DNA of 64,000 bases, taken from the NCBI RefSeq assembly GCF_003671765.1, contig NZ_QPIB01000007.1, positions 1 through 64,000 of the forward strand, in the 5' to 3' direction. Source of the DNA: Xenophilus sp. E41. GTDB lineage: Bacteria > Pseudomonadota > Gammaproteobacteria > Burkholderiales > Burkholderiaceae_C. The position numbers were made by a program, and so were the translations under genes. Shown piece after piece: positions 23,093-54,066 of this stretch (position 1 is the first letter of the stretch; each line of letters begins with the position of its first letter). The notes under the pieces are model-generated. The model worked only from the letters and a program-made list of their open reading frames with translations, did no database searches and was not told the DNA's origin.

Positions 23093-24067
23093 TCAGTCGG
23101 CGCGGATGCGAAGTTCCTGCGCCAGGCGGCCCAGCCGGCGGTTCTCGTCGTCGACGAAGCGGGTGAACGCGGCGCGGTCGCCCAGCATCGGCTCGCTGTT
23201 GCGCTGCGCGATGAACTGCCGCTGCTCGGGCGTGGAGATGAAGCTCTGCACCGCCGCGTTGATGCGGTCCATCACCGCCGGCGGCGTGCCCTTGGGCGCC
23301 ATGAGGCCCAGCCAGTGCGTCATGCGGATGGTGGGAAAGCCCGCCTCCACCGTCGTCGGCACCTCGGGCAGGGCGGCCAGGCGGTGGTCCGACGCCACGG
23401 CCAGCGCGCGCATCCTGCCCGCCTTGACCAGTGCGATGAGCGAGGCCGAGGGCACTTCCGACAGCATCTGCACCTGCCCCGAATGCAGCGCGGCGCTGCT
23501 CTCGCCGCCGCTCTTGTACTGCACGAAGGTCAGCGGAACGCCGAGCGCCGCCTTGATCAGCTCGCCCGAGAAATGGCTGGTGCTGCCGATGCCGGTGGTG
23601 GCGAAGAAGATGCCGCGCGGCTCGGCACGTGCCAGGGCCTGCAGCTCCTTCATGTTCGTCGCCTTGAGCGAGGGGTCCACCACCAGCAGCGAAGGCGAGG
23701 CGGACACGCCCGTGACCGGCACCAGGTCGCCGGGCGCGTAAGGCATCTTGGCGCGGATCAGGCTGTTGATCAGCGTGCCGTTGGCGGCGGCCAGCAGCGT
23801 GTAGCCATCGGGCGGTGCCTTGGCCACCAGGTCGGCGCCGATGATGCCGCCCGCGCCGGGCTTGTTGTCCACGATGACCGGCTGGCCCAGCGCCTTGGCC
23901 AGGCCGTCGGCCACCATGCGGGCGGTGTCGTCGCCCGGGCCACCGGCGGCGTACGGCGTGACGATGCGGATCGGCTTGGTGGGCCAGGCGGGCGACTGGG
24001 CCCAGGCGGCGCCGGCCCCCAGGGCGAGGGCGAGCGTGAACAGCGCCGTGCGTGCGAGCGGCTTCAT
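23093..24067 (-). CDS. Tripartite tricarboxylate (Bug/TctC) substrate-binding protein 1
   Basis: A 324-residue periplasmic binding protein. The signal peptide is MKPLARTALFTLALALGAGA, cut after AWAQ. The mature part has the Bug pattern: WPTKPIRIVTPYAAGGPGDDTAR at the start, then VDNKPGAGGIIG and PPDGYTLL, the loops that clamp carboxylate ligands. It is the last gene of the eleven-gene minus-strand operon, separated from MmgE/PrpD by 79 bp containing a dispersed repeat. No TctA or TctB membrane component lies in the window. The ligand is probably a di- or tricarboxylate. Confidence 0.92.
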   Translation of the reverse strand: MKPLARTALFTLALALGAGAAWAQSPAWPTKPIRIVTPYAAGGPGDDTARMVADGLAKALGQPVIVDNKPGAGGIIGADLVAKAPPDGYTLLAAANGTLINSLIRAKMPYAPGDLVPVTGVSASPSLLVVDPSLKATNMKELQALARAEPRGIFFATTGIGSTSHFSGELIKAALGVPLTFVQYKSGGESSAALHSGQVQMLSEVPSASLIALVKAGRMRALAVASDHRLAALPEVPTTVEAGFPTIRMTHWLGLMAPKGTPPAVMDRINAAVQSFISTPEQRQFIAQRNSEPMLGDRAAFTRFVDDENRRLGRLAQELRIRAD

Positions 24068-24079
24068 GGGAGTCTCCTT

Positions 24080-24135
24080 GCTATCGAATTCATAGCTGCA
24101 TGCGCCAATGGGACGGGCGATGCAGCCCGATCTGC
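24080..24135 (+). repeat. GCTAT-N7-ATAGC hairpin repeat, copy 3
   Basis: GCTATCGAATTCATAGC (24080-24096) followed by TGCATGCGCCAATGGGACGG and GCGATGCAGCC. It lies in the gap between the MmgE/PrpD gene and Bug gene 1, only 12 bp upstream of the Bug gene start. The RNA hairpins could affect translation or mRNA processing inside the operon. Confidence 0.75.
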
Positions 24136-24146
24136 CTCGAAAAGTC

Positions 24147-25592
24147 TCAGTCGAAGGCGGCGCGCGCCGGCGGCGCAAGCAGCGCGAGCAGCTCGCGCAT
24201 GTCGTCCACCGCGTCCAGCCCGCGCACCAGGCGCTCGATCGCCTGCTGCCGCGGCGCGTCGATCAGCGCCTCGGTCAGCGTGCGGTACTTGGCGGCGATC
24301 TCGTCGCTCGTCTGCGGTGCTTCGATGGCGCGCGAGGCGTTGCGCTCCACCACCAGGCGCTGGCCGTCGGTGAAGCTCACCGCGACGCGCGTGCGGCCGC
24401 GGCGCAGCATGCCGCCGGCGTCGAAGTCCGGGTCGTGCCGCACCTCGATGCGCGGCAGCAGCGCCCACACATCGTCGGCATCGATGCGCCCGGGCGCGAA
24501 CTGCGCCACCATCGCCGCGCCGTCGAGCACCGCCACCGCCAGCGCGTAGCCGATGTTCATCTGCGCGCCGATCGGCGTCAGCGGCCGCTCGGGTGTCCAC
24601 CAGCCGTGGTGGTAGACCGCATGCGACACGTCGCACTCGATGCGCGCGATCTCGGCAGCGCGCAGCGGGCGCTGGCGGCCGATGTCGAACAGGGCGTCCA
24701 GCGGCGAGTGGATGCCGCCCATCGCCGCGTAGGGCTTGATGACGATGCGCTCCACCTCCCAGCGCGTGCCCAGGCCGTCGGTGATCTGCGAGGCGTCCGG
24801 GTCGTGGCCTTCGCCGAAGGTGGACAGGAAGCCGCCGTACTCGCGCTCGAACACGCGCTTGATGCCGGTGTAGCCGCCCTCGGCCAGCACCGCGGCGTAC
24901 AGGCCGTTGCGTGCCGAGAAGCCGTGGTGCATGCGCTTGCACATCGCCTCGTACTGCGCGGCCATGAGACCGGCGGACTGCGTGCCGGCCAGGCCCAGCG
25001 CGTCCTCGAAGCGGGCGGCGTCCAGGCCCAGCAGCTTGCCCACCGCAGCCGCGGCCGCATGGGTGCCGAAGACCGAGCCCGAGTGCCAGCCGCGCGAGAG
25101 CATCTGCGCGCCGTGCAGCGCCATGCCCACGCGCGGGCCGACCTCGTAGCCCGCCATCGCCGCCTCCAGGAAACGACGCCCGGACACGGGCGCCGGCGCG
25201 CTCTCCACGGCCGCCCACAGCGCGGGCAGCACGATGGATGCACTGTGCAGCGGTCCGAGCGGGTGGTAGTCGTCCAGCTCGAAGCCCTGGATGAAGGTGC
25301 CGTTGAGCAGCGCCGCCGCCGGCGCGCTGGTGCCCGCGCCCCAGCCGACGATCGTGTGCGTGCCGGCACCTTCGAAGCGGCGCACGATGTCCACCGCCGT
25401 GCGCGACCACGGCAGCTGTGCACCCACGATCGCGCAGGCGATGCCGTCGAGCGTCAGCATGCGGGCGCGCTCGCGGGCCGATTCGGGCGCATCGTCGAGC
25501 GAGAAGCCGGCGAGCCAGTCGCACAGCAGGCCGGTGGGTGCGGCGGGGTCGGTGGGGCGTGCCGGCGCGGCGGCAGGTCGGGCATCGGTCAT
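24147..25592 (-). CDS. MmgE/PrpD family protein
   Basis: A 481-residue member of the family that includes 2-methylcitrate dehydratase (PrpD), cis-aconitate decarboxylase and iminodisuccinate epimerase. Family motifs are visible: FELDDYHPLGPLHSASIVLP (about residues 100-120), GWHSGSVFGTHAAAAA and KPYAAMGGIHSPLDA. The reaction cannot be assigned from motifs; a hydratase/dehydratase or decarboxylase step on a polycarboxylate fits the operon. It starts 10 bp after the acyl-CoA ligase stop, so co-transcription is certain in practice. Confidence 0.9.
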   Translation of the reverse strand: MTDARPAAAPARPTDPAAPTGLLCDWLAGFSLDDAPESARERARMLTLDGIACAIVGAQLPWSRTAVDIVRRFEGAGTHTIVGWGAGTSAPAAALLNGTFIQGFELDDYHPLGPLHSASIVLPALWAAVESAPAPVSGRRFLEAAMAGYEVGPRVGMALHGAQMLSRGWHSGSVFGTHAAAAAVGKLLGLDAARFEDALGLAGTQSAGLMAAQYEAMCKRMHHGFSARNGLYAAVLAEGGYTGIKRVFEREYGGFLSTFGEGHDPDASQITDGLGTRWEVERIVIKPYAAMGGIHSPLDALFDIGRQRPLRAAEIARIECDVSHAVYHHGWWTPERPLTPIGAQMNIGYALAVAVLDGAAMVAQFAPGRIDADDVWALLPRIEVRHDPDFDAGGMLRRGRTRVAVSFTDGQRLVVERNASRAIEAPQTSDEIAAKYRTLTEALIDAPRQQAIERLVRGLDAVDDMRELLALLAPPARAAFD

Positions 25593-25602
25593 GGGGGCAC
25601 CT

Positions 25603-27243
<1,641 letters not shown>

Positions 27244-27289
27244 GGCAGCTTTGGATAGAGGAATGAATGGGGGCTGGAGGTGCGGGGCC

Positions 27290-28300
27290 TCAGCCTTCGA
27301 TGACGAGCTTGCGTTCGGCGACCAGCTGCTTCCAGGTGGCGAGCTCCGCCGAGATCACGCCGCGCACGTCCTGGCCCGCCGGTGGCAGGGTCTGGCCCAG
27401 CGCCTCGAGGCGGCTGACGACCGCGGGCGTGGCCAGCACCTGCGCGACCGAGCGGCGCAGCGTGGAGACGACCGGCTCGGGCAGCCCGGCCGGACCCACC
27501 AGCGCGAACCAGCCCGGCGCCTCGAAGCCGGGGATGACCGACTCCGCGATCGTCGGCACGCCGGGCAGGGACGCCAGGCGGCTGCGCGAGCTCACACCCA
27601 GTGCCTTGAGCTTGCCGGCCTGGATGAAGCCCTGCGTGGCCGTGGGTGTGAGGAAGGCGAACTGCACCTCGCCCGCGAGCAGCGCGTTGATGGCCGGCGC
27701 GCCGCCGCGGTAGGGCACATGCAGCGCATAGGTGCCGGTGCGCGACTTGAACAGCTCCGTCGTCAGGTGGCCCACGCTGCCGGCACCGCCCGAGGCGTAG
27801 CTGAACTTGCCCGGCGCCTTGCGCATCGCCTCGATCAGCTCGCGCAGGCTGCCCACACCGGCCGAGGCCGAGGCAACCAGCACCTGGGGCACGTGCGACA
27901 CCATGGTGATCGGCGTGAAGGCGGCGAGCGGGTCGTAGCCCGCGTTGCGCAGGGCCGGCACGATGGTGAGCGGGGCGTTGTCGAGCAGGCCCAGCGTGTA
28001 GCCGTCGGGTGCGGCGCGCGCGACTTCCGCGCCGGCGATCGTGCCGCTGGCGCCGGCCTTGTAGTCCACCACCAGCGGCTGGCCGAGCGCGGCGGCCAGC
28101 GGCACGGTGAGTTCGCGGGCCGTCGTGTCGGCGGAGCCGCCGGGCGTGTAGCCCAGCACCACGCGCACCGGGCGCGCAGGCCAGGCCTGCGCGCGGGCCG
28201 GCAGGCCGAGCGCCAGCGCGCCGGCGGCGCCGGCGAGGCGGCCGAGGCAGGCGCGCCGGGCCAGGTCGGCGCCGCGGTCCGAGCTGCGGGTGCCGCTCAT
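27290..28300 (-). CDS. Bug/TctC substrate-binding protein 2
   Basis: A 336-residue periplasmic binding protein with an Arg-rich n-region (SSDRGADLARRACLGRLAG) and cleavage after ARAQ. Bug motifs: WPARPVRVVLGYTPGGSADT, VVDYKAGASGTIAG and APDGYTLG. Its ATG overlaps the stop of the YrdC-like gene by four bases (ATGA), so the two are translationally coupled. The RRACLGRL stretch resembles a Tat motif, but Sec export is as likely. Ligand unknown. Confidence 0.92.
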   Translation of the reverse strand: MSGTRSSDRGADLARRACLGRLAGAAGALALGLPARAQAWPARPVRVVLGYTPGGSADTTARELTVPLAAALGQPLVVDYKAGASGTIAGAEVARAAPDGYTLGLLDNAPLTIVPALRNAGYDPLAAFTPITMVSHVPQVLVASASAGVGSLRELIEAMRKAPGKFSYASGGAGSVGHLTTELFKSRTGTYALHVPYRGGAPAINALLAGEVQFAFLTPTATQGFIQAGKLKALGVSSRSRLASLPGVPTIAESVIPGFEAPGWFALVGPAGLPEPVVSTLRRSVAQVLATPAVVSRLEALGQTLPPAGQDVRGVISAELATWKQLVAERKLVIEG

Positions 28301-29031
28301 TGCACGCCCTGCAGCGCGAATTCGTTGAGGTGCCCCGACGGCAGCGCCTCGACGCCCGGGTCCTCGGGCAGGTCGACGCCGAACCATCGCTTGAGCACGC
28401 CCGAGATCAGCTCGTAGCACGCGCCCATGCGGATGACCTGCAGGGTGTCGAAGTTGATCAGCGTGCCCGCGCGGCGGTACACGTGGTAGCGGCGCAGGCC
28501 GTAGTCGATGGTGATGTCGGCGATGGCGCGCAGCTCGGGCTGGATGTCCTCGACCCGGAAGCGCGTGCCGGTGCCGCTGAGGTTGGCCGACGAGCCGAAG
28601 AGCGGCACCACCTCCTCCCGGCTCAGCCGGGTCAGCGCCTTGTGGAAGGGGCCGGCGTTGAGCAGGATGCCGATGGTGCCCACGGCCGAGCTGGCGCGCA
28701 CCGCCTCGTCGCCGAGCTGGCGCAGCAGCGGGTGGTCGGGGCGGAAGCTGCCGATCACGCCCAGCGGCAGGTCGTGGTCGACGACCAGCGCCTCCACCAT
28801 TTCCTGGGCGCGGGGGCTGAGGGTCTGCAGCTCGCGCTGGGTCTCCAGGTCGGCGGCCATGGCGTTGCGCTTGTGGCCGCCGCGCTGCTTGGTGGCGTAG
28901 ATCTTCTGCAGCGGGTCCATCGAGCCGCCGCAGCAGGCGTAGCCGGTGTCGTTGGGCACGATGGCGACGCCGCCGTTCTTGATGATGTCGAGGGTGCGGC
29001 GGGCGTCGCCGGCAATGTCGATGCTGGGCAT
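28297..29031 (-). CDS. YrdC/Sua5-domain protein in catabolic operon
   Basis: A 244-residue protein with a YrdC-like fold: the opening strand IVPNDTGYACCGG, a KQR motif in IYATKQRGGHKRNAM corresponding to the KxR nucleotide-binding site, and FGSSANLSGTG near residue 150. True TsaC makes threonylcarbamoyl-AMP for the tRNA t6A base, but this copy sits inside a carboxylate catabolic operon, coupled to a Bug gene. It also has a C-terminal extension (about residues 190-244). It is probably a paralogue with another acyl/carbamoyl-adenylate role. The housekeeping tsaC is not in this window. Confidence 0.82.
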   Translation of the reverse strand: MPSIDIAGDARRTLDIIKNGGVAIVPNDTGYACCGGSMDPLQKIYATKQRGGHKRNAMAADLETQRELQTLSPRAQEMVEALVVDHDLPLGVIGSFRPDHPLLRQLGDEAVRASSAVGTIGILLNAGPFHKALTRLSREEVVPLFGSSANLSGTGTRFRVEDIQPELRAIADITIDYGLRRYHVYRRAGTLINFDTLQVIRMGACYELISGVLKRWFGVDLPEDPGVEALPSGHLNEFALQGVQ

Positions 29032-29081
29032 GTAGGTGTCTCCGGGTCGATGGTGGAAAAGGAAGGGCGGGGCGCGCGGCG

Positions 29082-30059
29082 TCAGTCCACCTGCACACCG
29101 GCGTCGTTCACCGCCTGGCCCCACTTGCGGATCTCGCTGGCCAGGAAGCGACCGAAGTCGGCCGGCATCGTGATGGCCAGTTCGCTGCCCGTCGCACGGA
29201 TCGATTCCTGGATCTCGGGGCTGGCCGACGCACGCTGGATGGCTGCGTGCAGCGCGTTCACCGTGGCGGGCGGCGTGCCGGCCGGCGCCAGGAAGCCCAC
29301 CCAGGAGCTGATGTCGAAGCCCTTGAGCCCCTGCTCGTCGGCGGTGGGCACCTCGGGCAGCAGCGGGTTGCGCCTGGGGCTGGAGACGGCGAGCGCCTTG
29401 AGCTTGCCGGCCTTGACCTGCGGCAGAGTGGAGGCGAGCGCGTCGAACATGATCGGCACCTGCCCGGCCATCACGTCGTTGATGGCGGCCGGCGAGCCCT
29501 TGTAGGGGATGTGGTTGAGCTGCAGGCCGGCCTGGCGCTCGAGCACCACCATCGCGAGGTGGGCCGTGATGCCGTTGCCGCCCGAGGCGAAGTCCACCTT
29601 GCCCGGCCGCTGCTTCGCATACGCGATCAGCTCCCTGAGGTTGTTGGGCCCGAAGGAAGGCGTCGCCACCAGCAGCAGCGCGCCGGTGCTGACCTGCGCG
29701 ATCGGCGCGAAGTCCTTGAGCGTGTCGTAAGGCAGCTTCTTGTACAGCGTCGGGTTGATGGTCATCTGCCCCAGCGTGCCGAGCAGGATCGTGGTGCCGT
29801 CGGGCGCGCTCTTCTTCACCTCCTGCGCGCCAAGGCTGCCATTGGCGCCGGGGCGGTTGTCGACGATCACCGGCTGGCCGGTCTCCTTGGTGAGCGCGGC
29901 GGCGAAGTTGCGCGCCACGATGTCGACGGTCTGGCCGGCCGGGTAGCCGACCACGATGCGCAGCGGCCTGCCTGGCATGCCTTGCGCGAGTGCGGGGCCG
30001 GCGAGCGCCAGGCCGGCGAGGGCGGCCAGCGCGTGTCGGCGCGAAAGGGGGATCGGCAT
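29082..30059 (-). CDS. Bug/TctC substrate-binding protein 3
   Basis: A 325-residue periplasmic binding protein. The signal sequence MPIPLSRRHALAALAGLALA contains SRRHALA, a Tat-like twin arginine, with cleavage after ALAQ. Bug motifs: GRPLRIVVGYPAGQTVD, IVDNRPGANGSLGA and APDGTTIL. It lies between the PrpF-family gene (43 bp upstream) and the YrdC-like gene (50 bp downstream). No TTT permease is present nearby. Confidence 0.92.
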   Translation of the reverse strand: MPIPLSRRHALAALAGLALAGPALAQGMPGRPLRIVVGYPAGQTVDIVARNFAAALTKETGQPVIVDNRPGANGSLGAQEVKKSAPDGTTILLGTLGQMTINPTLYKKLPYDTLKDFAPIAQVSTGALLLVATPSFGPNNLRELIAYAKQRPGKVDFASGGNGITAHLAMVVLERQAGLQLNHIPYKGSPAAINDVMAGQVPIMFDALASTLPQVKAGKLKALAVSSPRRNPLLPEVPTADEQGLKGFDISSWVGFLAPAGTPPATVNALHAAIQRASASPEIQESIRATGSELAITMPADFGRFLASEIRKWGQAVNDAGVQVD

Positions 30060-30102
30060 GTCTGTCTCCGTGGTTCCGAATACGGGAAAGTCGAAGCGCG
30101 CT

Positions 30103-31275
30103 TCAGAGCGCGTCGCGCGGCACGTACACCGTGCCGGCCATGAGGCGGCGCGCCGTGCGCTGCAGGCCCAGCGCAGCGAAGTGCGTGTCGGCCGGTGTGG
30201 CACCGGGCCGGGCGACGACCTTCACGGTCATCACACCCAGCGGGTGGCCGATGCGCAGGGTGTCGGTGCCCGCGCGCTCGCCCACCGCCGCGTTCACCAG
30301 CGAACCCGGCACGCGCGAGGCGGCCGCCGTGCACATCGAGCCGGTGCCGGCCATGCTGTCGTGGCATTTGCCGAGGAACACCAGGCGTGCGCGCAGGTCG
30401 CAGTCGGCCGCCTTCAAGGTGGCATGGTTGGTGTCGATGTAGTCGGCCGGCGGCGCCACCAGCACCGCCAGCGGCAGGCCGGGCAGATGTACGTCCTTCC
30501 AGTCCTTGTAGAGCCCGATGCGTTCGCCGGCCTTGGATTGCAGTTCGCCGATCGCCTCGATCAGCGCGCGGTCGCCGCCGATGTCGGGTGGCAGCTCGCT
30601 GCCCGTGAGGCCGAGCGAACCCGCGGCGATGAACACGCAGGGCGTGGCCGCGTCCACGATCGAGACCTCGACGCGGCGGCCGTCCTCCAGCACGATGGTG
30701 TCGACCGCCTGGCCGGTGGGCAGCAGCCGGCCGGTCTTGGCGCCCAGCGTGTCGGTGTAGTCCATGAGGATCTCGGCACCGGTGCCGGGCACGCCGGCGA
30801 TGGCGCAGTCGCCCTGCACGCGCGCCTTGCCCTTCCTCACCTGCACCTTCGACACGAACACCGTGCCGGTGTTGGTGTTGTGGATGCGCACGGTGGTGAC
30901 GGGCTCCACGGCATCGACCAGGCCCTCGTCGATCGCGAAGGGGGCCACGGCCGAGGAGATGTTGCCGCAGTTGGCGTCGTAGCCGATCAGGTCGCGCTCG
31001 ACGTCGGCCTGCGCGAAGGTGTAGTCCACGTCGGCGCCGGGCCGCTCGGAACGCTTGATGATCGCGATCTTGGAGGTGACCAGGCGCGAGCCGCCCAGGC
31101 CGTCGATCTGCAGCACGTCGGGCGTGCCCATGGCACGCTTGAGCAGGCGGTCGCGTGCAGGGCCGGGAGCGGGCACATCGGCTTCGTGGAAGAACAGTGC
31201 CTTGCTGGTGCCGCCGCGCATGAGCACGCAGCGCACCTCGATCTGTTCGTTGTCCAGGGGGAGGGTGGGTGTCAT
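30103..31275 (-). CDS. PrpF-family isomerase (methylitaconate/aconitate isomerase-like)
   Basis: A 390-residue member of the PrpF/DUF453 family, with two diaminopimelate-epimerase-like halves. Signatures: RCVLMRGGTSKALFFHE (about residues 15-31), DANCGNISSAVAPFAI with the first catalytic Cys (about 100-115), and CHDSMAGTGSMCTAAAS in the second half. Known members move a C=C bond or cis/trans-isomerise polycarboxylates: PrpF on 2-methylaconitate, GalD on oxalomesaconate, Mii on 3-methylitaconate. Together with the LeuCD-like hydratase and C-C lyase here, an isomerase role opening the hydration step is likely. Confidence 0.9.
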   Translation of the reverse strand: MTPTLPLDNEQIEVRCVLMRGGTSKALFFHEADVPAPGPARDRLLKRAMGTPDVLQIDGLGGSRLVTSKIAIIKRSERPGADVDYTFAQADVERDLIGYDANCGNISSAVAPFAIDEGLVDAVEPVTTVRIHNTNTGTVFVSKVQVRKGKARVQGDCAIAGVPGTGAEILMDYTDTLGAKTGRLLPTGQAVDTIVLEDGRRVEVSIVDAATPCVFIAAGSLGLTGSELPPDIGGDRALIEAIGELQSKAGERIGLYKDWKDVHLPGLPLAVLVAPPADYIDTNHATLKAADCDLRARLVFLGKCHDSMAGTGSMCTAAASRVPGSLVNAAVGERAGTDTLRIGHPLGVMTVKVVARPGATPADTHFAALGLQRTARRLMAGTVYVPRDAL

Positions 31276-31297
31276 CGATGCTTCCAGGGTGCTGCGC

Positions 31298-32287
31298 TCA
31301 TTCCAGCGGGTAGCGCTTGACCAGCGCGCCCAGGCGCTCGCTCTCCTCGCGCACCTGCGTGACGAAGTCGGCGGGCTCGTTCACCACCGGCTCGGCGCCC
31401 GCGGCGGCAATGGTCTGGCGCACGTCGTTGTCCTTCACCGCCTCGCGCAGTGCGGCGACGATGCCCTGCTGCACCGGCGCGGGCGTGCCCTTGGGCGCGA
31501 AGAGGCCGAACCAGGTCACCGACTGGAACTGCGGGAAGCCCGCCTCGGCGGTGGTCGGCACGTCGGGCAGCGCGGCGGCGCGCGTGCGCCCCTGCGTGGC
31601 CAGGATCCGCAGGGTGCCGGCCTTGTGGTGCGGCATGGCGGCCGTGATGCCGGTGAAGGCGAAGTTCACGTTGTTGGCGATCATGTCCGTCACGATCGCA
31701 CCCGTGCCGCGGTAGTTGACGGTGATGAGTCCCGGCAGCGGCACCTCGGCGGCGATCTGCTTGGCGCTCACCCGCGCCAGCGTCTCGCCGCTGGCGATCG
31801 AACAGGGCTGCGGCGCCTTCTGGCAGTACTGGAAGAGCTCGGGCAGCGTCTTCACCGGCAGCCTCGCACTGACAACGATGGCGGCCGGCGATTGCGACAC
31901 GGCCGTCACCGGTGCGAGCTGCGCCAGCGGGTCGATGCCCTTGAGCCCCGGCGTGTACCGGGTCAGCACGATGGCCGGCACCTGCAGCAGCAGGGTGTAG
32001 CCGTCGGGCTTGGCTTCCATCACGCGCCTCGTGCCGATCAGGCCGTCGGCGCCGGGCAGGTTCTCGACCACCACCGCCTGCTTCCACAGCACGCCCAACT
32101 GCTTGGCCACGGCGCGCGCGGTCGCGTCGGTGCCGCCGCCGGCCGAGTACGGAACGATCAGCGTCACGGGCCGCTCCGGACGCCAGGGCGCGGGCTGCGC
32201 CGCCGAAGTGGTTGCTATGAAAAAGATAGCTGCTCCCGCAAGCAGTGCGGGCGCTGCGGGCCGCTTTCGCTTGAATTCCTGTGGCAT
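31298..32287 (-). CDS. Bug/TctC substrate-binding protein 4 (repeat-derived signal peptide)
   Basis: A 329-residue periplasmic binding protein with Bug motifs RPVTLIVPYSAGGGTDATAR, VVENLPGADGLIG and KPDGYTLLLQ. The signal peptide MPQEFKRKRPAAPALLAGAA is encoded by a copy of the dispersed GCTAT-N7-ATAGC repeat (32214-32270). The basic n-region and hydrophobic core both come from repeat DNA read antisense. It remains a plausible Sec signal, with cleavage after TTSAAQ. It lies 55 bp after the LeuD-like gene and 22 bp before the PrpF-family gene. Confidence 0.9.
   Translation of the reverse strand: MPQEFKRKRPAAPALLAGAAIFFIATTSAAQPAPWRPERPVTLIVPYSAGGGTDATARAVAKQLGVLWKQAVVVENLPGADGLIGTRRVMEAKPDGYTLLLQVPAIVLTRYTPGLKGIDPLAQLAPVTAVSQSPAAIVVSARLPVKTLPELFQYCQKAPQPCSIASGETLARVSAKQIAAEVPLPGLITVNYRGTGAIVTDMIANNVNFAFTGITAAMPHHKAGTLRILATQGRTRAAALPDVPTTAEAGFPQFQSVTWFGLFAPKGTPAPVQQGIVAALREAVKDNDVRQTIAAAGAEPVVNEPADFVTQVREESERLGALVKRYPLE
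32214..32272 (+). repeat. GCTAT-N7-ATAGC hairpin repeat, copy 4 (inside a CDS)
   Basis: GCTATGAAAAAGATAGC (32214-32230), then TGCTCCCGCAAGCAGTGCGG and GCGCTGCGGGCCGCTTT. This is the same two-hairpin plan as the intergenic copies, but it lies wholly within the 5' end of the Bug 4 gene on the opposite strand and encodes its signal peptide. Confidence 0.8.
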
Positions 32288-32342
32288 GTTGTCTCCGTGG
32301 GCGGTGCCCTGTGCTTGTTGTTGTCGGCGCAGTCGCAGCGGG

Positions 32343-32969
32343 CTACGGGCGCGGCCGGGCCGTGGGCCAGGCCCAGGGGCGCCGCTGCCGGTCGGCGGCC
32401 TGCCAGGCGCGGATCAGGGCGTCGTCCTTGAGCGTCAGGCCGATGTCATCCAGCCCGTGCAGCAGCGCTTCGCGACGCAGCGGGTCGATGGTGAAGGGGA
32501 TTGCCTGGCCCTCTGGCGTCGTCACGGCGCAGGCCTGCAGGTCGACCGTCACGGGCGCGCCGCCCCCGCATTGCGCGGCGAGCGCCTGCACCTGCGCGAT
32601 GGGCAGCGTGATCGGCAGCACGCCGTTCTGGAAGCAGTTGCTCCAGAAGATGTCGCCGTAGCTCGGCGCGATCACGCAGCGCACGCCGATGCCCTGCAGC
32701 GCCCACACGGCGCCCTCGCGCGAGGAGCCGCAGCCGAAGTTCTCGGCCGCCAGCAGCACCGGTGCGCCCTGAAAGCGCGGCGCGTTCAGCACGCAGTCGG
32801 CGTCCTCGCTGCCGTCGGGGCGGCGGCGCAAGGCCTCGAAGGCGTAGTGGCCCAGCTCGGTCTTGCCCAGTGTGGTCAGGCGCTCGATGCGGATGATGAC
32901 ATCGGTATCGACGTTGGGCCGCATCAGCGGCACGGCCGGGCCGGTGACGGTGGTGAAGGGCGTGTTCAT
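32343..32969 (-). CDS. LeuD-like hydratase small subunit
   Basis: A 208-residue swivel subunit of an aconitase-superfamily hydro-lyase. It has the small-subunit pattern NVDTDVIIRIERLTTLGK and ENFGCGSSREGAVWAL, with the Ser/Arg residues that bind the substrate carboxylate. It overlaps the large subunit gene by four bases (ATGA). It resembles LeuD (isopropylmalate isomerase) but is regulated and placed with catabolic genes, so a dimethylmaleate/citraconate-type hydratase is more likely than leucine synthesis (inference). Confidence 0.9.
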   Translation of the reverse strand: MNTPFTTVTGPAVPLMRPNVDTDVIIRIERLTTLGKTELGHYAFEALRRRPDGSEDADCVLNAPRFQGAPVLLAAENFGCGSSREGAVWALQGIGVRCVIAPSYGDIFWSNCFQNGVLPITLPIAQVQALAAQCGGGAPVTVDLQACAVTTPEGQAIPFTIDPLRREALLHGLDDIGLTLKDDALIRAWQAADRQRRPWAWPTARPRP

Positions 32970-34369
32970 GCCAGATTCCGTACGTCGGTGATGCGGCCGA
33001 TGACCGCGGCGGCGGCAGCCATCGCGGGGCTCGCCAGGTGGGTGCGCGCACCGGGGCCCTGCCGGCCGACGAAGTTGCGGTTGGAGGTGGAGACCGAGCG
33101 CTGCTGCGGCGGCACCTGCTCGCCGTTGGCGGCCACGCACATGCTGCAGCCGGGCTCGCGCCACTCGAAGCCCGCGGCGGCGAAGACGTCGTGCAGGCCC
33201 TCGGCTTCGGCGGCGCGCTTGACGTTCTCGGAGCCCGGCACGACCCAGGCGCGCACGCCCTCGGCCACGCGCCGGCCGCGCGCCACCTCGGCAGCGGCGC
33301 GCAGGTCCGCCAGGCGCGAGTTGGCGCAGGAGCCGATGAACACCCAGTCCACCGCCGTGCCGGCGATGGGTGCATTGGCCTGCAGGCCCATGTAGTCGAG
33401 CGCCGCGCCCCAGGCCTCGCGGTCGGTGGCTGTGGCGGCACGCGACGGGTCGGGCACGGCGCCGTCGATGGCGATCGCATGCTCGGGGCTGGTGCCCCAG
33501 GTGATCGTCGGCGCGACGGCAGCGGCGTCGATGGTCTCTTCGCGGTCGAACGCCGCATCGGCATCGCTGGCCAGCGTGCGCCAGTGGGCGGCCGCGGCCT
33601 CGAAGGCCTCGCCCTGCGGCGCGTACGGGCGGCCGCGCAGCCAGTCGATGGTGGTCTCGTCGGGCGCGACCATGCCGAAGCGCGCGCCCAGCTCCACGCT
33701 GAGGTTGCACAGGGTCAGGCGGCCCTCGACGTCCAGCGCCTCGACGGCCGGGCCGGCGAATTCGATCGCGTAGCCCACGCCCGCGGCAGCCCCCAGGCGG
33801 CCGATGACGTGCAGCGCGAGGTCCTTGGCCGTCACGCCGGCCGCCAGGCGGCCCTCGCAGCGGATGCGCATGCGCCGCGGCTTCTGCTGGCGCAGCGTCT
33901 GCGTGGCCAGCGCGTGCGTGCTCTCGGACGAGCCCACGCCGAAGGCCATCGCGCCCAGGCCGCCGTTGGTGCAGGTGTGGCTGTCGCCGCAGATCACCGT
34001 GAGGCCGGGCAGCACGATGCCCATCTCCGGGCCCATCACGTGCACGATGCCCTGGCCGGGCTCGCCCAGGTCGAACAGCTGCACGCCCATCGCGCCGGTG
34101 AGCTGCTTCAGGCCCGCGTGCAGCTTGCCGCCCAGCGGGAAGGTGGTGGCCACGCGGCCCGGCTGGCTCGACACGGCATGGTCAGGCGTGGCGAAGACGA
34201 GCTCGGGGTCGTGCAGCGCCATGCCGCGCGTGCGCACGTCGTTCAGCGCCGGCGGCCCCGACAGATCGTGCAGCAGGTGGCGGTCGATGTGCAGCAGCGC
34301 CCAGCCGTCACCGAGCTCGCGGATGACGTGGGCGTCCCACAGCTTGTCGAAGAGGGTGCGGGGCGGCAT
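32966..34369 (-). CDS. LeuC-like hydratase large subunit
   Basis: A 467-residue aconitase-superfamily subunit carrying the [4Fe-4S] cluster. The three Cys ligands are visible in IGSCANSR and the PGCSMC pair, and the substrate-binding VICGDSHTCTNGG and SNRNFVGRQG motifs are present. Length is that of LeuC (about 466). With the small subunit it would hydrate or isomerise a dicarboxylate. It starts one base from the stop of the lyase gene and overlaps the small subunit gene, giving an equimolar pair. Substrate is inferred from the operon, not from motifs. Confidence 0.92.
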   Translation of the reverse strand: MPPRTLFDKLWDAHVIRELGDGWALLHIDRHLLHDLSGPPALNDVRTRGMALHDPELVFATPDHAVSSQPGRVATTFPLGGKLHAGLKQLTGAMGVQLFDLGEPGQGIVHVMGPEMGIVLPGLTVICGDSHTCTNGGLGAMAFGVGSSESTHALATQTLRQQKPRRMRIRCEGRLAAGVTAKDLALHVIGRLGAAAGVGYAIEFAGPAVEALDVEGRLTLCNLSVELGARFGMVAPDETTIDWLRGRPYAPQGEAFEAAAAHWRTLASDADAAFDREETIDAAAVAPTITWGTSPEHAIAIDGAVPDPSRAATATDREAWGAALDYMGLQANAPIAGTAVDWVFIGSCANSRLADLRAAAEVARGRRVAEGVRAWVVPGSENVKRAAEAEGLHDVFAAAGFEWREPGCSMCVAANGEQVPPQQRSVSTSNRNFVGRQGPGARTHLASPAMAAAAAVIGRITDVRNLA

Positions 34370-34370
34370 G

Positions 34371-35261
34371 TCAGGCGCCCATGGTTGCGCCGGCGTTGAA
34401 GCGCGTGCGCAGCGCGTCCCACTCGTCGGCGCCGAAGCGGCGGAAGGTCTGCGCCACGGTGGCGCTGGTGGTGGGCGCCTGCATCGTGGCCTTGACCTCG
34501 GCGAGCGCGGCGTCGCCCGCCTCGATGGCGGCCTTGAGCATCAGGCCGGGCAGGATCGCGAGCCTGTAGCCCATCTCCTCGGCCTGGCGCAGGTCATGCA
34601 CCGGCGTGCGGCCGCCGGGCACCACGTTGAGCAGGCAGGCGCCCTTCACGCGGCGCGGCACGAGGGCAGCCTCCTCGACCGATTGCGTGGCCTCGACGAA
34701 GGCCATGTCGGCGCCCGCGTCGAGCGCGGCCTCGGCCCGCCACAGGGCCTCTTCCAGGCCCAGCATGGCGCGTGCGTCGGTGCGCGCGATGAGGAAGAAG
34801 TCGGGCGTGCGGCGTGCCTCCACCGCAGCGCGGATCTTCGAAACGAACTCGTCGCGCGAGATGACCTCCTTGCCGTCGAGGTGGCCGCAGCGCTTGGGCG
34901 AGACCTGGTCCTCGATGTGGATGGCGGCCACGCCGCGCGCCTCGTACTCGCGCACGGTGCGCGTCATGTTCAGCTCGTTGCCGTAGCCGGTGTCGGCGTC
35001 GGCGATCAGCGGGATCTGCACCGAGCGCGCCATCACGGCCGCGTTCTCCACCATCTCGCTCATCGTGAGCAGGCCGAAGTCGGGAAAGCCGCGCGCCGCC
35101 GAGGTGCCCGCGCCGGTCATGTAGCAGGCGCCGAAGCCGGCCTGCTCGATCAGGCGCGCGCCGATGCCGTCGTAGGCGCCGGGGGCGATGCGCAGACCGG
35201 GCGCGGCGAGCTGCTGGCGCAGGCGGGCGCCAGCGCTGACGGGCGGGAGGGGGGTGCTCAT
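34371..35261 (-). CDS. Isocitrate lyase/PEP mutase-family C-C lyase
   Basis: A 296-residue TIM-barrel enzyme. Mg-binding acids are in LIADADTGYGN (about residues 85-95). The catalytic loop is SPKRCGHLDGKEV (about 120-132), matching the K(K/R)CGH loop of isocitrate, 2-methylisocitrate and 2,3-dimethylmalate lyases. Such enzymes split a 2-hydroxy-dicarboxylate by retro-aldol cleavage into a 2-oxoacid plus a carboxylate. Its ATG at 35261 is the first of the operon, facing the GntR gene. Specificity cannot be fixed by eye; dimethylmalate or methylmalate lyase fits the partner enzymes best. Confidence 0.9.
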   Translation of the reverse strand: MSTPLPPVSAGARLRQQLAAPGLRIAPGAYDGIGARLIEQAGFGACYMTGAGTSAARGFPDFGLLTMSEMVENAAVMARSVQIPLIADADTGYGNELNMTRTVREYEARGVAAIHIEDQVSPKRCGHLDGKEVISRDEFVSKIRAAVEARRTPDFFLIARTDARAMLGLEEALWRAEAALDAGADMAFVEATQSVEEAALVPRRVKGACLLNVVPGGRTPVHDLRQAEEMGYRLAILPGLMLKAAIEAGDAALAEVKATMQAPTTSATVAQTFRRFGADEWDALRTRFNAGATMGA

Positions 35262-35312
35262 GGGCGATGTCTCCTGATTGGGGCCGACCGGATCACGCTT
35301 TCACCGCGCCGG

Positions 35313-35336
35313 TGTTGTTCTATTATTATGACAACA
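35313..35336. promoter_or_regulatory. Inverted repeat, probable GntR operator
   Basis: Arms TGTTGT (35313-35318) and ACAACA (35331-35336) surround an AT-rich core in the 133-bp gap between the divergent lyase operon and the HutC/GntR gene. The core holds TATTAT (35321-35326), a possible plus-strand -10 element. The AT-rich island stands out from the high-GC flanks. Size, symmetry and position suit a GntR-family operator controlling both directions (inference). Confidence 0.55.
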
Positions 35337-35394
35337 TCAACACAAGTCAACCGGCTATGCTTCGACGCCCGCTCCAAGCGCTCAGCCGACCCCG

Positions 35395-36213
35395 ATGAAG
35401 CCCGTGAATGCCCTGCCCGACACCGAAGCTCTGCCCGTCGGCCGCACCCCTGGCACGGCGTTGCATCGCCAGCTTTTCATGGTGCTGCGCGACGAGATCG
35501 TGCGGGGCGAGTACGCGTCGGGCCTGTTGCCCAAGGAAGAGGCGCTCTGCGAGCGCTTCGGCGTCTCGCGCATCACGGTGCGGAGGGCGCTGGCCGACCT
35601 CGCAGCCCAGGGGCTGGTGGAGCGTCGACACGGACGCGGCACCTTCGTGCGCGAGGACCGCCTGCCGCTGGCGCGCGCGCGGCCCAGCCTGAGCCTGATC
35701 GACAGCCTGCGCCAGGCCGCGATCGACACGCAGGTGCAGGTGCTTCGCGTGGAGCAGACCGAGCCGCCACTTGACGTGGCGGCAATGCTGCAGCTCGCGC
35801 CCGGCGAGAAGGCGGTGCACGCCCTGCGCCTGCGCAGCATCGATGGCACGCCCGTGATGCTGACCGACGCCTGGGTGCCGGCGCGCCTGGGCAAGCAGGT
35901 GACGGCCGCCACGCTGCGCAAGCAGGCGCTCTACGAGATCCTGCTGGCGCAGGGCGTGAAGTTCGGCCGCGTGATCCAGGAGATCACGGCCGAGGTGAGC
36001 GACCCGGTGCGCGCCCGCCTCATGCAGACCGAGGTCGGCATGCCGCTGTTGAAGATCGTGCGCGTGATCCATGACCCACAGGCGCGGCCGGTGCAGTACA
36101 TCACCGTGACCATGACGCCCGAGCGCAGCCGCATCCTCATGGACATCCCGGGCGAGACGGTCAACACGCTCAGCGCCGGGCAGTTCGTGCACGAGGTGCC
36201 CGCGGCGCGCTGA
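35395..36213 (+). CDS. HutC-subfamily GntR transcriptional regulator
   Basis: A 272-residue regulator. The N-terminal winged helix-turn-helix (about residues 20-90) has LHRQLFMVLRDEIVRGEY and CERFGVSRITVRRALADL. The C-terminal UTRA effector domain (about 110-260) is of the HutC type, which binds small metabolites. It is divergent from the eleven-gene catabolic operon and is the obvious candidate repressor, with the pathway substrate or intermediate as inducer (inference). It is convergent with the phospholipase C gene (24 bp). Confidence 0.92.
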   Translation: MKPVNALPDTEALPVGRTPGTALHRQLFMVLRDEIVRGEYASGLLPKEEALCERFGVSRITVRRALADLAAQGLVERRHGRGTFVREDRLPLARARPSLSLIDSLRQAAIDTQVQVLRVEQTEPPLDVAAMLQLAPGEKAVHALRLRSIDGTPVMLTDAWVPARLGKQVTAATLRKQALYEILLAQGVKFGRVIQEITAEVSDPVRARLMQTEVGMPLLKIVRVIHDPQARPVQYITVTMTPERSRILMDIPGETVNTLSAGQFVHEVPAAR

Positions 36214-45761: not shown

Positions 45762-46997
45762 CTACTTCACGAACTGGTTGAGCTGGATGATCGGCAGCAG
45801 CACCGCCAGCACGATCATCATCACGATGCCGCCCATGGCGACGATGAGCAGCGGTTCCAGGATGGTGGCCAGGTGCATGGCGCGGCGCTGCACTACGGCG
45901 CCGAGCTGCTGCGAGGCGCGCTGCAGCATCGCCGGCAGCTGGCCGGTCTGTTCGCCCAGGCGCGCGAACAACGAGACGATGCCGGGGAAGCGCTTCTTCT
46001 GCGCCAGGGCCGAGGCCAGCGGCGCACCCTCGCGCACCAGCACCAGCGCGTCGAGCGCGTCGGCGCGCATCGCACGGTTGCCCAGCGTCTCGGCCGCGGC
46101 CTGCAGGGCGCGCAGGATGGGCACGCCAGCGGCGGCGAGCATCGCCAGCGTGCCGGCGAAGCGCGCGGCGTTGTAGCCGCGCGAGAGCCGGCCCACCAGC
46201 GGCAGGCGCAGCCAGGCGGCGTCGAAGGCTTCGCGCCAGGCCGGGCGCGCGAGCGCGGCGCGGCCCAGGACGAAGAGCGCCACGACGCCGCCGAGCAGCA
46301 GCCAGCCGTGGTTGCGGATGAAGGCGCTCAGGCCCAGCATGATCTGCGTCAGGATCGGCAGCGCCCGCTTGGTGCCGGCGAACACATTGGCCACCTGCGG
46401 CACCACGTAGCTCACGAGGAAGATCACGATGACGATCGCGATCACCGTGACGATGGCCGGGTACAGCGTGGCACCGACCAGCTTCTGCTGCAGCGCCTGG
46501 CGCTGCTCCAGGTCGTCGGCCAGGCGGTCGAGCACCAGGCCGAGGTTGCCGCTGTGCTCGCCGGCACCGATCACGGCGGTGTAGATGGGCGAGAACTCGC
46601 GCGGGTGCTGGCTCAGCGCGCGTGCGAAGGTCGAGCCGCCGTTGACTTCGGAGCGCAGGCCGGCCACCAGCTCGCGCTGGGCGGCGTTCTCGGACTCCTC
46701 GGTCAGCGCGGTGAGCGCGCGCTCGAGCGGCAGGCCCGAGGACACCAGGCCTGCGAGCTGGCGCGTCCACACCGCCAGGCCCGTGGCATTGAACACGCGG
46801 CGCCGGCCCAGTGCGCCCCAGCCGCTGCCGCCGCCGGCCCCCCCCGCGCCCTCGGACTGGCCGACCGGGCTGACCGACAGCGGGATCAGCGCCTGCGCGC
46901 GCAGCAGGCCGCGCGCGCTGCGTGCGGTGTCGGCTTCGAGCACGCCCTTGCGGGGGCGGCCTTCCTGGTCGATGGCTTCAAAGGAATAGGCGGGCAT
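45762..46997 (-). CDS. gspF: Type II secretion inner-membrane platform protein GspF
   Basis: A 411-residue polytopic platform protein. It begins MPAYSFEAIDQEGRPRKGVL, typical of GspF, and has two T2SSF domains (about residues 75-195 and 275-400) with three membrane helices near 172-195, 222-245 and 375-400. It links the GspE ATPase to pseudopilus assembly. A Gly-rich insertion (GAGGAGGGSG) sits near residue 50. It is the last gsp gene on the minus strand, separated from gspE by a small secreted-protein gene. Confidence 0.95.
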   Translation of the reverse strand: MPAYSFEAIDQEGRPRKGVLEADTARSARGLLRAQALIPLSVSPVGQSEGAGGAGGGSGWGALGRRRVFNATGLAVWTRQLAGLVSSGLPLERALTALTEESENAAQRELVAGLRSEVNGGSTFARALSQHPREFSPIYTAVIGAGEHSGNLGLVLDRLADDLEQRQALQQKLVGATLYPAIVTVIAIVIVIFLVSYVVPQVANVFAGTKRALPILTQIMLGLSAFIRNHGWLLLGGVVALFVLGRAALARPAWREAFDAAWLRLPLVGRLSRGYNAARFAGTLAMLAAAGVPILRALQAAAETLGNRAMRADALDALVLVREGAPLASALAQKKRFPGIVSLFARLGEQTGQLPAMLQRASQQLGAVVQRRAMHLATILEPLLIVAMGGIVMMIVLAVLLPIIQLNQFVK

Positions 46998-47091
46998 GGC
47001 GGCAGGCGTCGGAGGGCGCGTCGGCGCATTGTCGGGCGTTCGTGTGGCGGCGCCGCGCGGCGCGAGGGCGAAGGGCGCGGGCGGGCACGGG

Positions 47092-47520
47092 TCAGCGCCG
47101 CAGGATGCCCGAGATCTCGACCGGCTCGCGGTCGAATGCCCCCGTGGCCTTGGCGCGCAGCGAGGCATGCTCCAGCGCCAGGCTGGTGAGCAGGCGGCCC
47201 TGGTAGCGGCCGTTCAGGCGCGGGTCCTGGCAGGCGCTGAGGTCGAGCCGCAGCTCGGCGTGCGCCGTGGTGCGGAAGTCGGCGGCGGTGCCGGCGATGG
47301 TGCAGCGCACGGCCGGCAACTGGCCCGACACGCCGCCGTCGGCGGCGATCTGCAGCCGTGCCGGCGAGCTGGCATGCCGCGTCACCTGGAAGCCGCCCTT
47401 GTCGAGCGAGGAGAAGAGCAGCGTGCCCTGCCAGGCGCCGTGGTAGTCGGCATAGCCCTGGGCATGGACGCCGGCGGCCAGGCAGCCGGCCGTCGCCAGG
47501 GCAAGGAGGGTGCGCGGCAT
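47092..47520 (-). CDS. Secreted protein between gspE and gspF
   Basis: A 142-residue protein with a signal peptide (MPRTLLALATAGCLAAGVHA, cut before QGYADY). The mature part is beta-rich, with YHGAWQGTLLFSSLDKGGFQ near the start and two Cys (VRCTIAG and LSACQD) about 25 residues apart, a likely disulfide. I recognise no family. It sits inside the type II secretion operon, 29 bp after gspE and 94 bp before gspF, so it may be a dedicated substrate or accessory factor (inference). Confidence 0.75.
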   Translation of the reverse strand: MPRTLLALATAGCLAAGVHAQGYADYHGAWQGTLLFSSLDKGGFQVTRHASSPARLQIAADGGVSGQLPAVRCTIAGTAADFRTTAHAELRLDLSACQDPRLNGRYQGRLLTSLALEHASLRAKATGAFDREPVEISGILRR

Positions 47521-47549
47521 GTCGCGAGGGTTGCCGGCGCGGCGACGGC

Positions 47550-51304: not shown

Positions 51305-51306
51305 GG

Positions 51307-52104: not shown

Positions 52105-52123
52105 GGTGATGGGCGTCGGCCGC

Positions 52124-52693
52124 TCAGCGGCTCGCGGGCAGGCCCATGACGAGCGTGCCGTCCCAGCGGACGGTGGGGCCCGAGGCGCCGTCGGCGGGCG
52201 CGTTGCCGCGCGTCGGCGCCGGGCCTGGAGCGGCGCCCGCCTGGCTGCGGGTGAGGTGCACTTCGCGCGGGACGGCGCGCGCGTTGCTGCGCGCCTGCGC
52301 GAGCCAGTCGCCCAGCGCCGCCGCGGGGGCGCCGCGCACCGAAAGGCCGACCGCGTCGCCGCCGCCGGCCGGCTGCAGCTGCGCGTCGGCGCCGAAGCTC
52401 TGCCGCACCGAGCTTTCGAGTGCGCGCACGGCATCGTCGCGGTTGGCGCGGGGTTGCGATTGCAGCGCGCGGGCCTGCGTCTGCAAGGCCTGCATCTGCT
52501 GCAGCTGCGTGTCGAGCCGGGCGTGTTCGGCCGGGGCCGCGGACAGCGTGCGCAGGGCCGGTGCCAGGGCGATCCACCACAGCAGCGCGAGGGCGATGAC
52601 CGCAGCCGCGCCGCCGATGAGGCGCTGTTCGCGCGGCGCGAGTTCGGGCCACCAGGCCTGCCAGCGCGCTTCGAGTTGCTGTGCGAGCGTCAT
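52124..52693 (-). CDS. gspM: Type II secretion protein GspM
   Basis: A 189-residue inner-membrane platform subunit with a short cytoplasmic N-terminus (MTLAQQLEARWQAWWPELAP), one membrane helix (about residues 27-47), a coiled-coil stretch rich in Gln/Ala (about 55-85) and a periplasmic ferredoxin-like domain. It partners GspL and lies 34 bp after it. Composition and position make the assignment safe although family sequence conservation is low. Confidence 0.9.
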   Translation of the reverse strand: MTLAQQLEARWQAWWPELAPREQRLIGGAAAVIALALLWWIALAPALRTLSAAPAEHARLDTQLQQMQALQTQARALQSQPRANRDDAVRALESSVRQSFGADAQLQPAGGGDAVGLSVRGAPAAALGDWLAQARSNARAVPREVHLTRSQAGAAPGPAPTRGNAPADGASGPTVRWDGTLVMGLPASR

Positions 52694-52727
52694 GCCGGCC
52701 TCCGCGGGAAGTGTTGCGCTGCGCCGT

Positions 52728-53939: not shown

Positions 53940-53987
53940 GCGGGGGTACGAAAAAAGCCTGCCATTCTAGGAGTCGGCGGAGCGCGC

Positions 53988-54046: not shown

Positions 54047-54066
54047 CTGAGATTGGCTACAAACTA

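What the first reader, a model, noticed from the sequence alone, without database searches (positions are those of the whole stretch)
23093..36213. Operon combining PrpF isomerase, LeuCD-like hydratase and PEP-mutase-type lyase: a possible methylitaconate/dimethylmaleate-type degradation pathway
Seen: eleven tightly spaced minus-strand genes with ATGA overlaps and 1-79 bp gaps, facing a HutC/GntR regulator with an inverted repeat between them. Known: in Eubacterium barkeri nicotinate fermentation, a PrpF-family isomerase (Mii), a LeuCD-like dimethylmaleate hydratase (DmdAB) and an isocitrate-lyase-family dimethylmalate lyase (Dml) act in sequence to give pyruvate and propionate. The same three enzyme classes are adjacent here, plus an acyl-CoA ligase and an MmgE/PrpD protein. 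Inference: this aerobe imports an alpha-methylene or methyl-branched polycarboxylate, isomerises the C=C bond, hydrates it and cleaves it to a 2-oxoacid and a short acid, which the ligase activates. I know of no described pathway with exactly this set in Comamonadaceae.
Basis: partly seen in the sequence, partly recalled or inferred. Interest (0 to 1): 0.8.

Follow-up and report, generated by a model that had tools for sequence, protein, structure and literature searches.

The report
Isomerase–hydratase–lyase operon, branched-acid breakdown
A bacterium close to Xenophilus carries an undescribed set of genes that probably takes in an unusual branched organic acid, moves its double bond, adds water and splits it; the chemistry resembles a pathway known from anaerobic vitamin B3 fermenters, but the exact acid is still unknown.

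Summary
In detail: eleven packed minus-strand genes (23093-35261) face a HutC-type regulator, with an operator-like palindrome over a promoter-like site. The core is lyase-LeuC-LeuD-PrpF. It is complete in 17 of 21 loci found with this PrpF type, in several gene orders, and three of them fuse LeuD and PrpF into one protein. The genome has a separate leucine leuCD. PrpF is nearest to Mii (3-methylitaconate isomerase), the lyase to fungal dimethylmalate lyase; LeuCD is a branch of the LeuC/LeuD family, not DmdAB. Isomerise-hydrate-cleave is therefore the best reading. MmgE most resembles iminodisuccinate epimerase. The CoA ligase and YrdC-like gene are local additions. New variant of a known kind; no enzyme was tested.

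The parts
35395..36213 (+). HutC/GntR-type regulator (GntR + UTRA), divergent from the operon
   Evidence: Pfam; divergent beside the lyase in the Xenophilus, Pseudacidovorax and Variovorax loci that reach that far
35313..35336 (.). operator-like palindrome TGTTGT-N12-ACAACA
   Evidence: one match in window, none in 100 shuffles; both arms exact in 5 of 12 regions compared
35322..35350 (-). sigma70-like promoter TTGACT-17-AATAAT overlapped by the palindrome
   Evidence: consensus match only
34371..35261 (-). PEP-mutase/isocitrate-lyase-family lyase (D61, K123-R-C125-G-H127), dimethylmalate-lyase-like
32966..34369 (-). LeuC-family hydratase large subunit
32343..32969 (-). LeuD-family hydratase small subunit with recognition-loop motif IIRIERL and SSREGAV
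31298..32287 (-). TctC-family periplasmic receptor 1
   Evidence: 55-94% relatives in many of the related loci, weaker or absent in others
30103..31275 (-). PrpF-family double-bond isomerase, Mii-like, K69 and C103 kept, loop GGSRLVTSK
29082..30059 (-). TctC-family periplasmic receptor 2 (class by likeness, not scanned)
28297..29031 (-). divergent Sua5/YciO/YrdC-fold protein, role unknown
27290..28300 (-). TctC-family periplasmic receptor 3 (class by likeness, not scanned)
25603..27243 (-). short-chain acyl-CoA ligase, passes NF005426 3-(methylthio)propionyl-CoA ligase (1000 bits, cut-off 822)
24147..25592 (-). MmgE/PrpD-family protein, nearest solved relative iminodisuccinate epimerase
23093..24067 (-). 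TctC-family periplasmic receptor 4

Best explanation
A regulated catabolic operon for an imported, branched or unsaturated polycarboxylic acid. Inferred order: TctC receptors capture the acid for permeases encoded elsewhere. The MmgE/PrpD protein epimerises it (or decarboxylates or dehydrates it). The PrpF isomerase moves an exocyclic-type C=C to the conjugated maleate-type position by an allylic proton shift. The LeuC-LeuD [4Fe-4S] hydratase adds water to give a 2-hydroxy acid. The isocitrate-lyase-family enzyme splits this into a 2-oxoacid and a short acid, and in this genus a CoA ligase activates the short acid. Shown: gene classes, catalytic residues, conservation of the core, LeuD-PrpF fusions, and separation from the leucine and methylcitrate enzymes. 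Inferred: reaction order, substrate, products. It works like the Mii-DmdAB-Dml segment of nicotinate fermentation but is a separate assembly, probably for a more anionic substrate. The first three rivals below are readings of its substrate, so their odds lie inside this one.
For: PrpF nearest to Mii by sequence, fold rank first, K69 and C103 invariant in 32 rows. Lyase D61 and C125 invariant in 21 rows, nearest solved relative dimethylmalate lyase. Lyase, LeuC and LeuD lie beside this PrpF in 17 of 21 loci; L042 has LeuC and LeuD and ends at its contig edge. A later genome has the same set split around gntR. LeuD and PrpF form one open frame in three loci. Streptantibioticus pairs a PrpF with Arg64 and a lyase with a DmdAB-type hydratase. 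The leucine leuCD lies elsewhere. The LeuD recognition loop has Arg in 19 of 19 against Phe/Tyr in 18 of 18 leucine rows; that loop is reported to set substrate preference in Arabidopsis (PMC7308503, section 19). Clostridial nicotinate-type clusters hold the same three classes together.
Against: No enzyme was assayed. Three of 21 loci with this PrpF show no LeuCD or lyase. L044 carries luciferase-like monooxygenase, AtuA and DUF4387 genes (Pfam) and L050 looks the same by eye, so the isomerase product can have other fates. L053 reaches only 2 kb upstream before its contig ends, so its absence is unsure. No MmgE match lies in the fetched Tistrella and Variovorax VAI-C stretches. The lyase tree's deep branches are weak, and the lyase's best NCBIfam model is prpB, below cut-off.
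Confidence: 0.65

Rival explanations
1. One reading: 3-methylitaconate to dimethylmaleate to 2,3-dimethylmalate to pyruvate plus propionate, with the ligase making propionyl-CoA.
For: Mii-like isomerase, dimethylmalate-lyase-like enzyme, short-chain CoA ligase, a PrpF-equivalog gene between an AcnD-like and a lyase gene elsewhere, which could dispose of propionyl-CoA (AcnD by eye).
Against: Hydratase is not DmdAB. Arg64 (23 of 23) and Lys180 (22 of 23) in PrpF stand where Mii has Asp and Ala, and the LeuD loop has Arg where the clostridial DmdB has Ala (my alignment by eye). Isomerase and lyase are not in the clostridial clades. Ligase is not conserved.
Confidence: 0.25
2. The substrate is a tricarboxylate (aconitate or alkyl-aconitate type), handled by a methylcitrate-cycle-like set lacking PrpC: MmgE in the PrpD role, PrpF, LeuCD in the aconitase role, the lyase in the PrpB role.
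For: All those classes are present. Extra positive charges at fingerprint positions. A Lys in the loop of the DmdAB-type small subunit of Streptantibioticus. Receptors of the tricarboxylate family (that family also carries other acids, recalled).
Against: PrpF lies far from the methylaconitate clade, and that clade has Thr or Ser, not Arg, in the loop, so Arg is not needed for a tricarboxylate. Lyase fails the prpB cut-off, 254 against 354 bits. MmgE's solved relatives are epimerase, Bacillus IRG1 homologue and decarboxylases, none a PrpD. No distance from Arg64 to the active site could be measured.
Confidence: 0.35
3. Itaconate or citraconate breakdown without CoA: isomerise itaconate to citraconate, hydrate to citramalate or 3-methylmalate, split to pyruvate plus acetate or glyoxylate plus propionate.
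For: Mii also acts on itaconate (stated in PMC4720413, passage). An MmgE/PrpD protein is a methylsuccinate isomerase in Pseudomonas and Cupriavidus itaconate clusters (PMC12290011, passages).
Against: Same fingerprint argument. The itaconate route described there is CoA-dependent (start of abstract).
Confidence: 0.2
4. 4-oxalomesaconate-type aromatic breakdown: PrpF as tautomerase, LeuCD as hydratase, lyase as aldolase.
For: PrpF scores 331 bits to the tautomerase model, above prpF at 263. A tannase gene lies beside one relative cluster.
Against: Below the 440-bit cut-off; a clostridial Mii relative shows the same order (321 and 303). LigU is a weaker sequence and fold match than Mii. No ring-cleavage family among the nine operon proteins scanned.
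Confidence: 0.07

Closest known systems
Mii-DmdAB-Dml segment of Eubacterium barkeri nicotinate fermentation
   Same: Same three reaction classes side by side; isomerase is Mii-like by sequence.
   Different: Hydratase is LeuC/LeuD-family, not DmdAB; own clades and fingerprints for isomerase and lyase; no B12 mutase among the nine operon proteins scanned; TctC receptors, MmgE and CoA ligase added.
AcnD/PrpF methylcitrate cycle
   Same: PrpF, an aconitase-superfamily enzyme, an isocitrate-lyase-family enzyme, a CoA ligase and an MmgE/PrpD protein.
   Different: No citrate-synthase family among the nine operon proteins scanned; PrpF and lyase fail the equivalog cut-offs; the genome has a separate cluster with a true PrpF (743 bits) beside an AcnD-like gene (by eye).
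Leucine-pathway isopropylmalate isomerase LeuCD
   Same: Same family; passes the leuC and leuD cut-offs.
   Different: Separate clade; loop RIERL instead of PKQ(F/Y)L, SSREGAV instead of SSREHA in nearly every row; leucine copy elsewhere in the genome.
Itaconate/methylsuccinate (Ict-Ich-Ccl) cluster
   Same: Has an MmgE/PrpD isomerase and serves branched C5 dicarboxylates (PMC12290011).
   Different: Uses CoA transferase, CoA-ester hydratase and citramalyl-CoA lyase (abstract).

Membership tests
Mii (3-methylitaconate isomerase) | Highest similarity to Mii and the catalytic Lys and Cys of the PrpF fold | tested here: met
   348 bits to 3g7k, first by fold at TM 0.92, PrpF 0.91, K69 and C103 invariant
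Mii (3-methylitaconate isomerase) | Falls inside the Mii clade and carries its loop with Asp before PLTSK | tested here: not met
   Separate clade; loop is GGSRLVT(S/A)K, Arg64 in 23 of 23
Mii (3-methylitaconate isomerase) | Activity on 3-methylitaconate | not testable with these tools
   no assay
PrpF (methylaconitate isomerase) | NCBIfam TIGR02334 cut-off 440.55 | tested here: not met
   262.6 bits
4-oxalomesaconate tautomerase | NCBIfam NF033377 cut-off 440 | tested here: not met
   330.7 bits
DmdAB (dimethylmaleate hydratase) | Groups with DmdA of nicotinate clusters | tested here: not met
   LeuC tree (its deep joins are flagged unsure, but the LeuC side has 100% support); small subunit 70 bits to the LeuD/DmdB model, cut-off 109
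LeuCD family | leuC and leuD model cut-offs | tested here: met
   595 bits against 560; 177 against 116
Leucine-pathway LeuCD | Inside the leucine clade with recognition loop PKQ(F/Y)L | tested here: not met
   leucine copy elsewhere
Dimethylmalate lyase | Nearest solved relative is a dimethylmalate lyase; lyase motif kept | tested here: met
   3fa3 best by sequence and fold, methylisocitrate lyases close behind by fold; D61 and C125 invariant
Dimethylmalate lyase | Groups with the lyases of clostridial nicotinate clusters | tested here: not met
   separate clade; joins fungal Dml/OAH at SH-aLRT 86
PrpB | TIGR02317 cut-off 354.4 | tested here: not met
   254 bits
MmgE/PrpD epimerases | The six active-site residues listed in PMC12290011 | tested here: inconclusive
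   by my mapping on the alignment five of six are kept (Glu as in methylsuccinate isomerase) and the first His is Gln
Nicotinate fermentation pathway | B12-dependent 2-methyleneglutarate mutase in the cluster | tested here: not met
   none among the nine operon proteins scanned with Pfam; the whole genome was not searched for it

The most novel reading that the evidence does not exclude
An undescribed aerobic pathway, spread patchily through Proteobacteria, in which a Mii-like isomerase with a new Arg/Lys fingerprint and a LeuCD-type hydratase with a re-coded recognition loop, sometimes fused as one protein, degrade a branched tricarboxylate by isomerisation, hydration and isocitrate-lyase-type cleavage. 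The lineage recruited leucine-family hydratase genes where anaerobes use DmdAB.
Probability: 0.35. Interest if true: 0.65.

Novelty: new variant of a known kind. Interest (0 to 1): 0.5.

Why it matters
It defines a sequence-recognisable pathway (LeuD RIERL, PrpF GGSRLVT) whose genes can bear leucine and propionate labels, as in the Variovorax VAI-C record. It gives a natural recoding of the isopropylmalate isomerase recognition loop, and a LeuD-PrpF fusion that ties isomerase and hydratase into one process. A short assay list could name the substrate.

Tried and rejected
Leucine biosynthesis: rejected, because leuC-leuD with a leuB-like neighbour lie elsewhere and the loop differs. Oxaloacetate decarboxylase or PEP mutase for the lyase: disfavoured by the KRCGH motif and ranking. 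Oxaloacetate hydrolase: the aligned position is Pro, as in dimethylmalate lyase, where the hydrolase has Ser (the meaning of that Ser is recalled). Methylcitrate PrpF: rejected by tree and cut-off. Oxalomesaconate tautomerase: not excluded, disfavoured.

Led nowhere: distances of Arg64 and Lys180 to the active site could not be measured, because no model coordinates were found in the script box. Papers on DUF4387 or holding three of four gene-set terms: none. A Variovorax WS11 isoprene paper labels a gene dml beside prpC-acnD-prpF (PMC9804861, one passage); that is an annotation in a methylcitrate cluster and not this operon. Passages on aconitase X (PMC8184944) gave nothing used. One search was a wrong-strand alignment, discarded and redone. 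The gene finder was rough and was replaced, which gave no genes for L048; its content comes. In one search the same finder gave receptor 1 of the window a later start than I use.

Rows left out before counts: near-duplicates L032, L034, L035, L036, L045 from the PrpF tree; L092, whose prpF is only partly matched; L121 from the 19 LeuD rows, because its match came in two pieces (its frame reads RIERL). L047 reads PIQRL, the one exception to RIERL among the 19. L143, found with the leucine LeuC, falls outside the 20-row leucine clade. The 21 loci come from a peptide-pattern scan, one genome hit and plasmid hits, so they are not an unbiased sample. L149 was added later and is counted apart. The three loci L054, L119 and L123, nearest outside the 21, are not counted; L123 and L054 have Arg64 but Ser at position 180, L119 has His and Lys there.

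Full report
OBSERVATION. The eleven genes, their order and their spacing are as described. Pfam gave the expected class for the nine operon proteins and the regulator that I scanned; receptors 2 and 3 were left out of that scan. The repeat between operon and regulator is TGTTGT-N12-ACAACA at 35313-35336, one exact match in the window and none in 100 shuffles. It overlaps a promoter-like site. Of 12 such gaps compared, the arms are exact in 5 (window, L035, L038, L039, L040), one or two letters off in 3 (L037, L041, L092) and absent in 4 (L043, L120, L121, L031).

HOST. The window's PrpF is 100% identical to that of Xenophilus aerolatus strain E41 (L034). Close PrpF relatives are rare: 4 of 299 sampled family genomes stand above 400 bits, the window's own genome and one of its own species included, and 2 of 399 sampled order genomes at E 1e-100, own genome included.

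CORE. A scan of genome contigs gave 68 loci. Adding one genome locus and plasmid loci, I count 21 loci with the window-type PrpF (tree; fingerprint). Lyase, LeuC and LeuD lie beside it in 17 of 21. One more (L042) has LeuC and LeuD and ends at its contig edge. Three show none: L044 and L050, and L053, whose contig ends 2 kb upstream. L149, fetched later, has the same set split into two divergent units around gntR. The Tistrella stretch has the four core genes followed by genes that look by eye like a TRAP transporter. MmgE-family matches are common but not universal. Close relatives of the CoA ligase occur in Xenophilus, Pseudacidovorax, one Variovorax and one metagenome bin, and the YrdC-like gene in a subset of these.

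FUSION. In Bordetella petrii MY10, B. pseudohinzii and Achromobacter aloeverae, LeuD and PrpF are one open frame with no stop between them. This ties isomerase and hydratase into one process.

ISOMERASE. Best solved relative is Mii at 348 bits; Shewanella PrpF 229, YbhH 206, LigU 200. The predicted model (pLDDT 92) matches Mii first at TM 0.92, with PrpF at 0.91, so the fold alone hardly separates them. The quick tree puts it in its own clade, far from methylaconitate PrpF and apart from clostridial Mii. Lys69 and Cys103, matching K73 and C107 of Shewanella PrpF (PMC5690661, abstract and passages), are invariant in 32 rows. In the loop before Lys69, Arg64 stands in 23 of 23 rows, against Asp in 8 of 8 Mii rows and Thr or Ser in 13 of 13 PrpF rows; Lys180 is 22 of 23, against Ala in 8 of 8 Mii rows.

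HYDRATASE. LeuC and LeuD pass the leuC and leuD cut-offs. The leucine pair is elsewhere in the genome (its LeuD scores 319 bits to the LeuD model). The LeuC tree separates the 20-row window clade from a 20-row leucine clade. In LeuD the loop reads RIERL in 18 of 19 and PIQRL in one, so Arg stands in 19 of 19 where 18 of 18 leucine LeuD have Phe or Tyr. This falls at the five-residue recognition region that a study of Arabidopsis small subunits reports to set substrate preference (PMC7308503, section 19 read); that the two regions coincide is my alignment by eye. In the clostridial DmdB the position is Ala; in the DmdAB-type small subunit of Streptantibioticus the loop reads AMKMD (by eye). That homoaconitase uses an Arg in this loop for an extra carboxylate is recalled, not looked up.

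LYASE. KRCGH motif kept; D61 and C125 invariant in 21 rows. Best solved relative A. niger dimethylmalate lyase by sequence (200 bits, the next three 183-190) and fold, with methylisocitrate lyases close behind by fold. Its best NCBIfam model is prpB, below cut-off. It forms a clade that joins fungal dimethylmalate lyase and oxaloacetate hydrolase with moderate support (86) and stays apart from PrpB and clostridial Dml.

MmgE. Best solved relative iminodisuccinate epimerase (106 bits), then a Bacillus subtilis IRG1 homologue and cis-aconitate decarboxylases. A 2025 study shows MmgE/PrpD proteins as methylsuccinate isomerases (PMC12290011, passages). Of the six residues it lists, five are kept here by my mapping and one His is Gln. 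Epimerase is my guess for its role.

COMPARISON. Dysosmobacter L064 serves as positive control: its ORFs read by eye as DmdAB, methyleneglutarate mutase, Mii and Dml, with further nicotinate-pathway genes (only Mii and Dml were family-scanned). Streptantibioticus L123 pairs a PrpF outside the 21 loci, with Arg64 but Ser at position 180, and a lyase with a DmdAB-type hydratase, so two hydratase families appear to fill one slot.

LITERATURE. Eight of ten searches used. None listed a paper that I could recognise as describing this gene set; most subscription journals are missing from the library, so this is weak evidence of absence. The E. barkeri pathway itself is taken from the finding and from PMC4720413 passages.

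VERDICT. The charge fingerprint in two successive enzymes favours a more anionic substrate, but the true PrpF clade handles a tricarboxylate without that Arg and no ligand-bound structure was available, so this stays an inference.

Noticed in passing
window 28297-29031: YrdC/Sua5-fold protein far below the TsaC cut-off (40 against 123 bits). The genome has two stronger copies elsewhere, yet this one is 97-98% conserved in L038, L039 and L045 (83% in L092), as much as or more than its neighbours.
   Followed up: partly
L115 5815-9752 (same genome, contig C41 about 324-328 kb): A second receptor-lyase-LeuC-LeuD set without PrpF, followed by an isochorismatase-type gene; its LeuD loop is PTIFL, different again.
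   Followed up: partly
L044 3443-11182; L050: Window-type PrpF in a cluster with luciferase-like monooxygenase, AtuA, DUF4387, MmgE and RibB genes instead of LeuCD and lyase (L044 by Pfam; L050 similar by eye).
   Followed up: partly
L055 and L098: PrpF with an aconitase-family large subunit; in L055 followed by a class III CoA transferase and an HMGL-like lyase, a third possible way to cleave the product.
   Followed up: partly
L092 10001-15539 (Variovorax paradoxus ISL-3): prpF is matched only for its first third and runs into receptor 2; the ligase is in two pieces. Decay or assembly error.
   Followed up: no
L120: Variovorax VAI-C plasmid carries two window-type PrpF genes of different subclades in one cluster, beside a tannase gene.
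   Followed up: partly
window 23093-32287: Four TctC-type receptors with no TctA/TctB gene among the eleven; six TctA-family matches lie elsewhere in the genome, one of them weak.
   Followed up: partly
L117 8576-9436: The lyase downstream of PrpF in the methylcitrate-type cluster fails the prpB cut-off (272 against 354) and groups with the L115 lyase rather than PrpB references.
   Followed up: no
window 62454-62516 (-): Rfam Betaproteobacteria toxic small RNA, 62 bits against a gathering score of 50.
   Followed up: no
window about 45762-56405 (-): Run of genes that look by eye like a type II secretion cluster.
   Followed up: no
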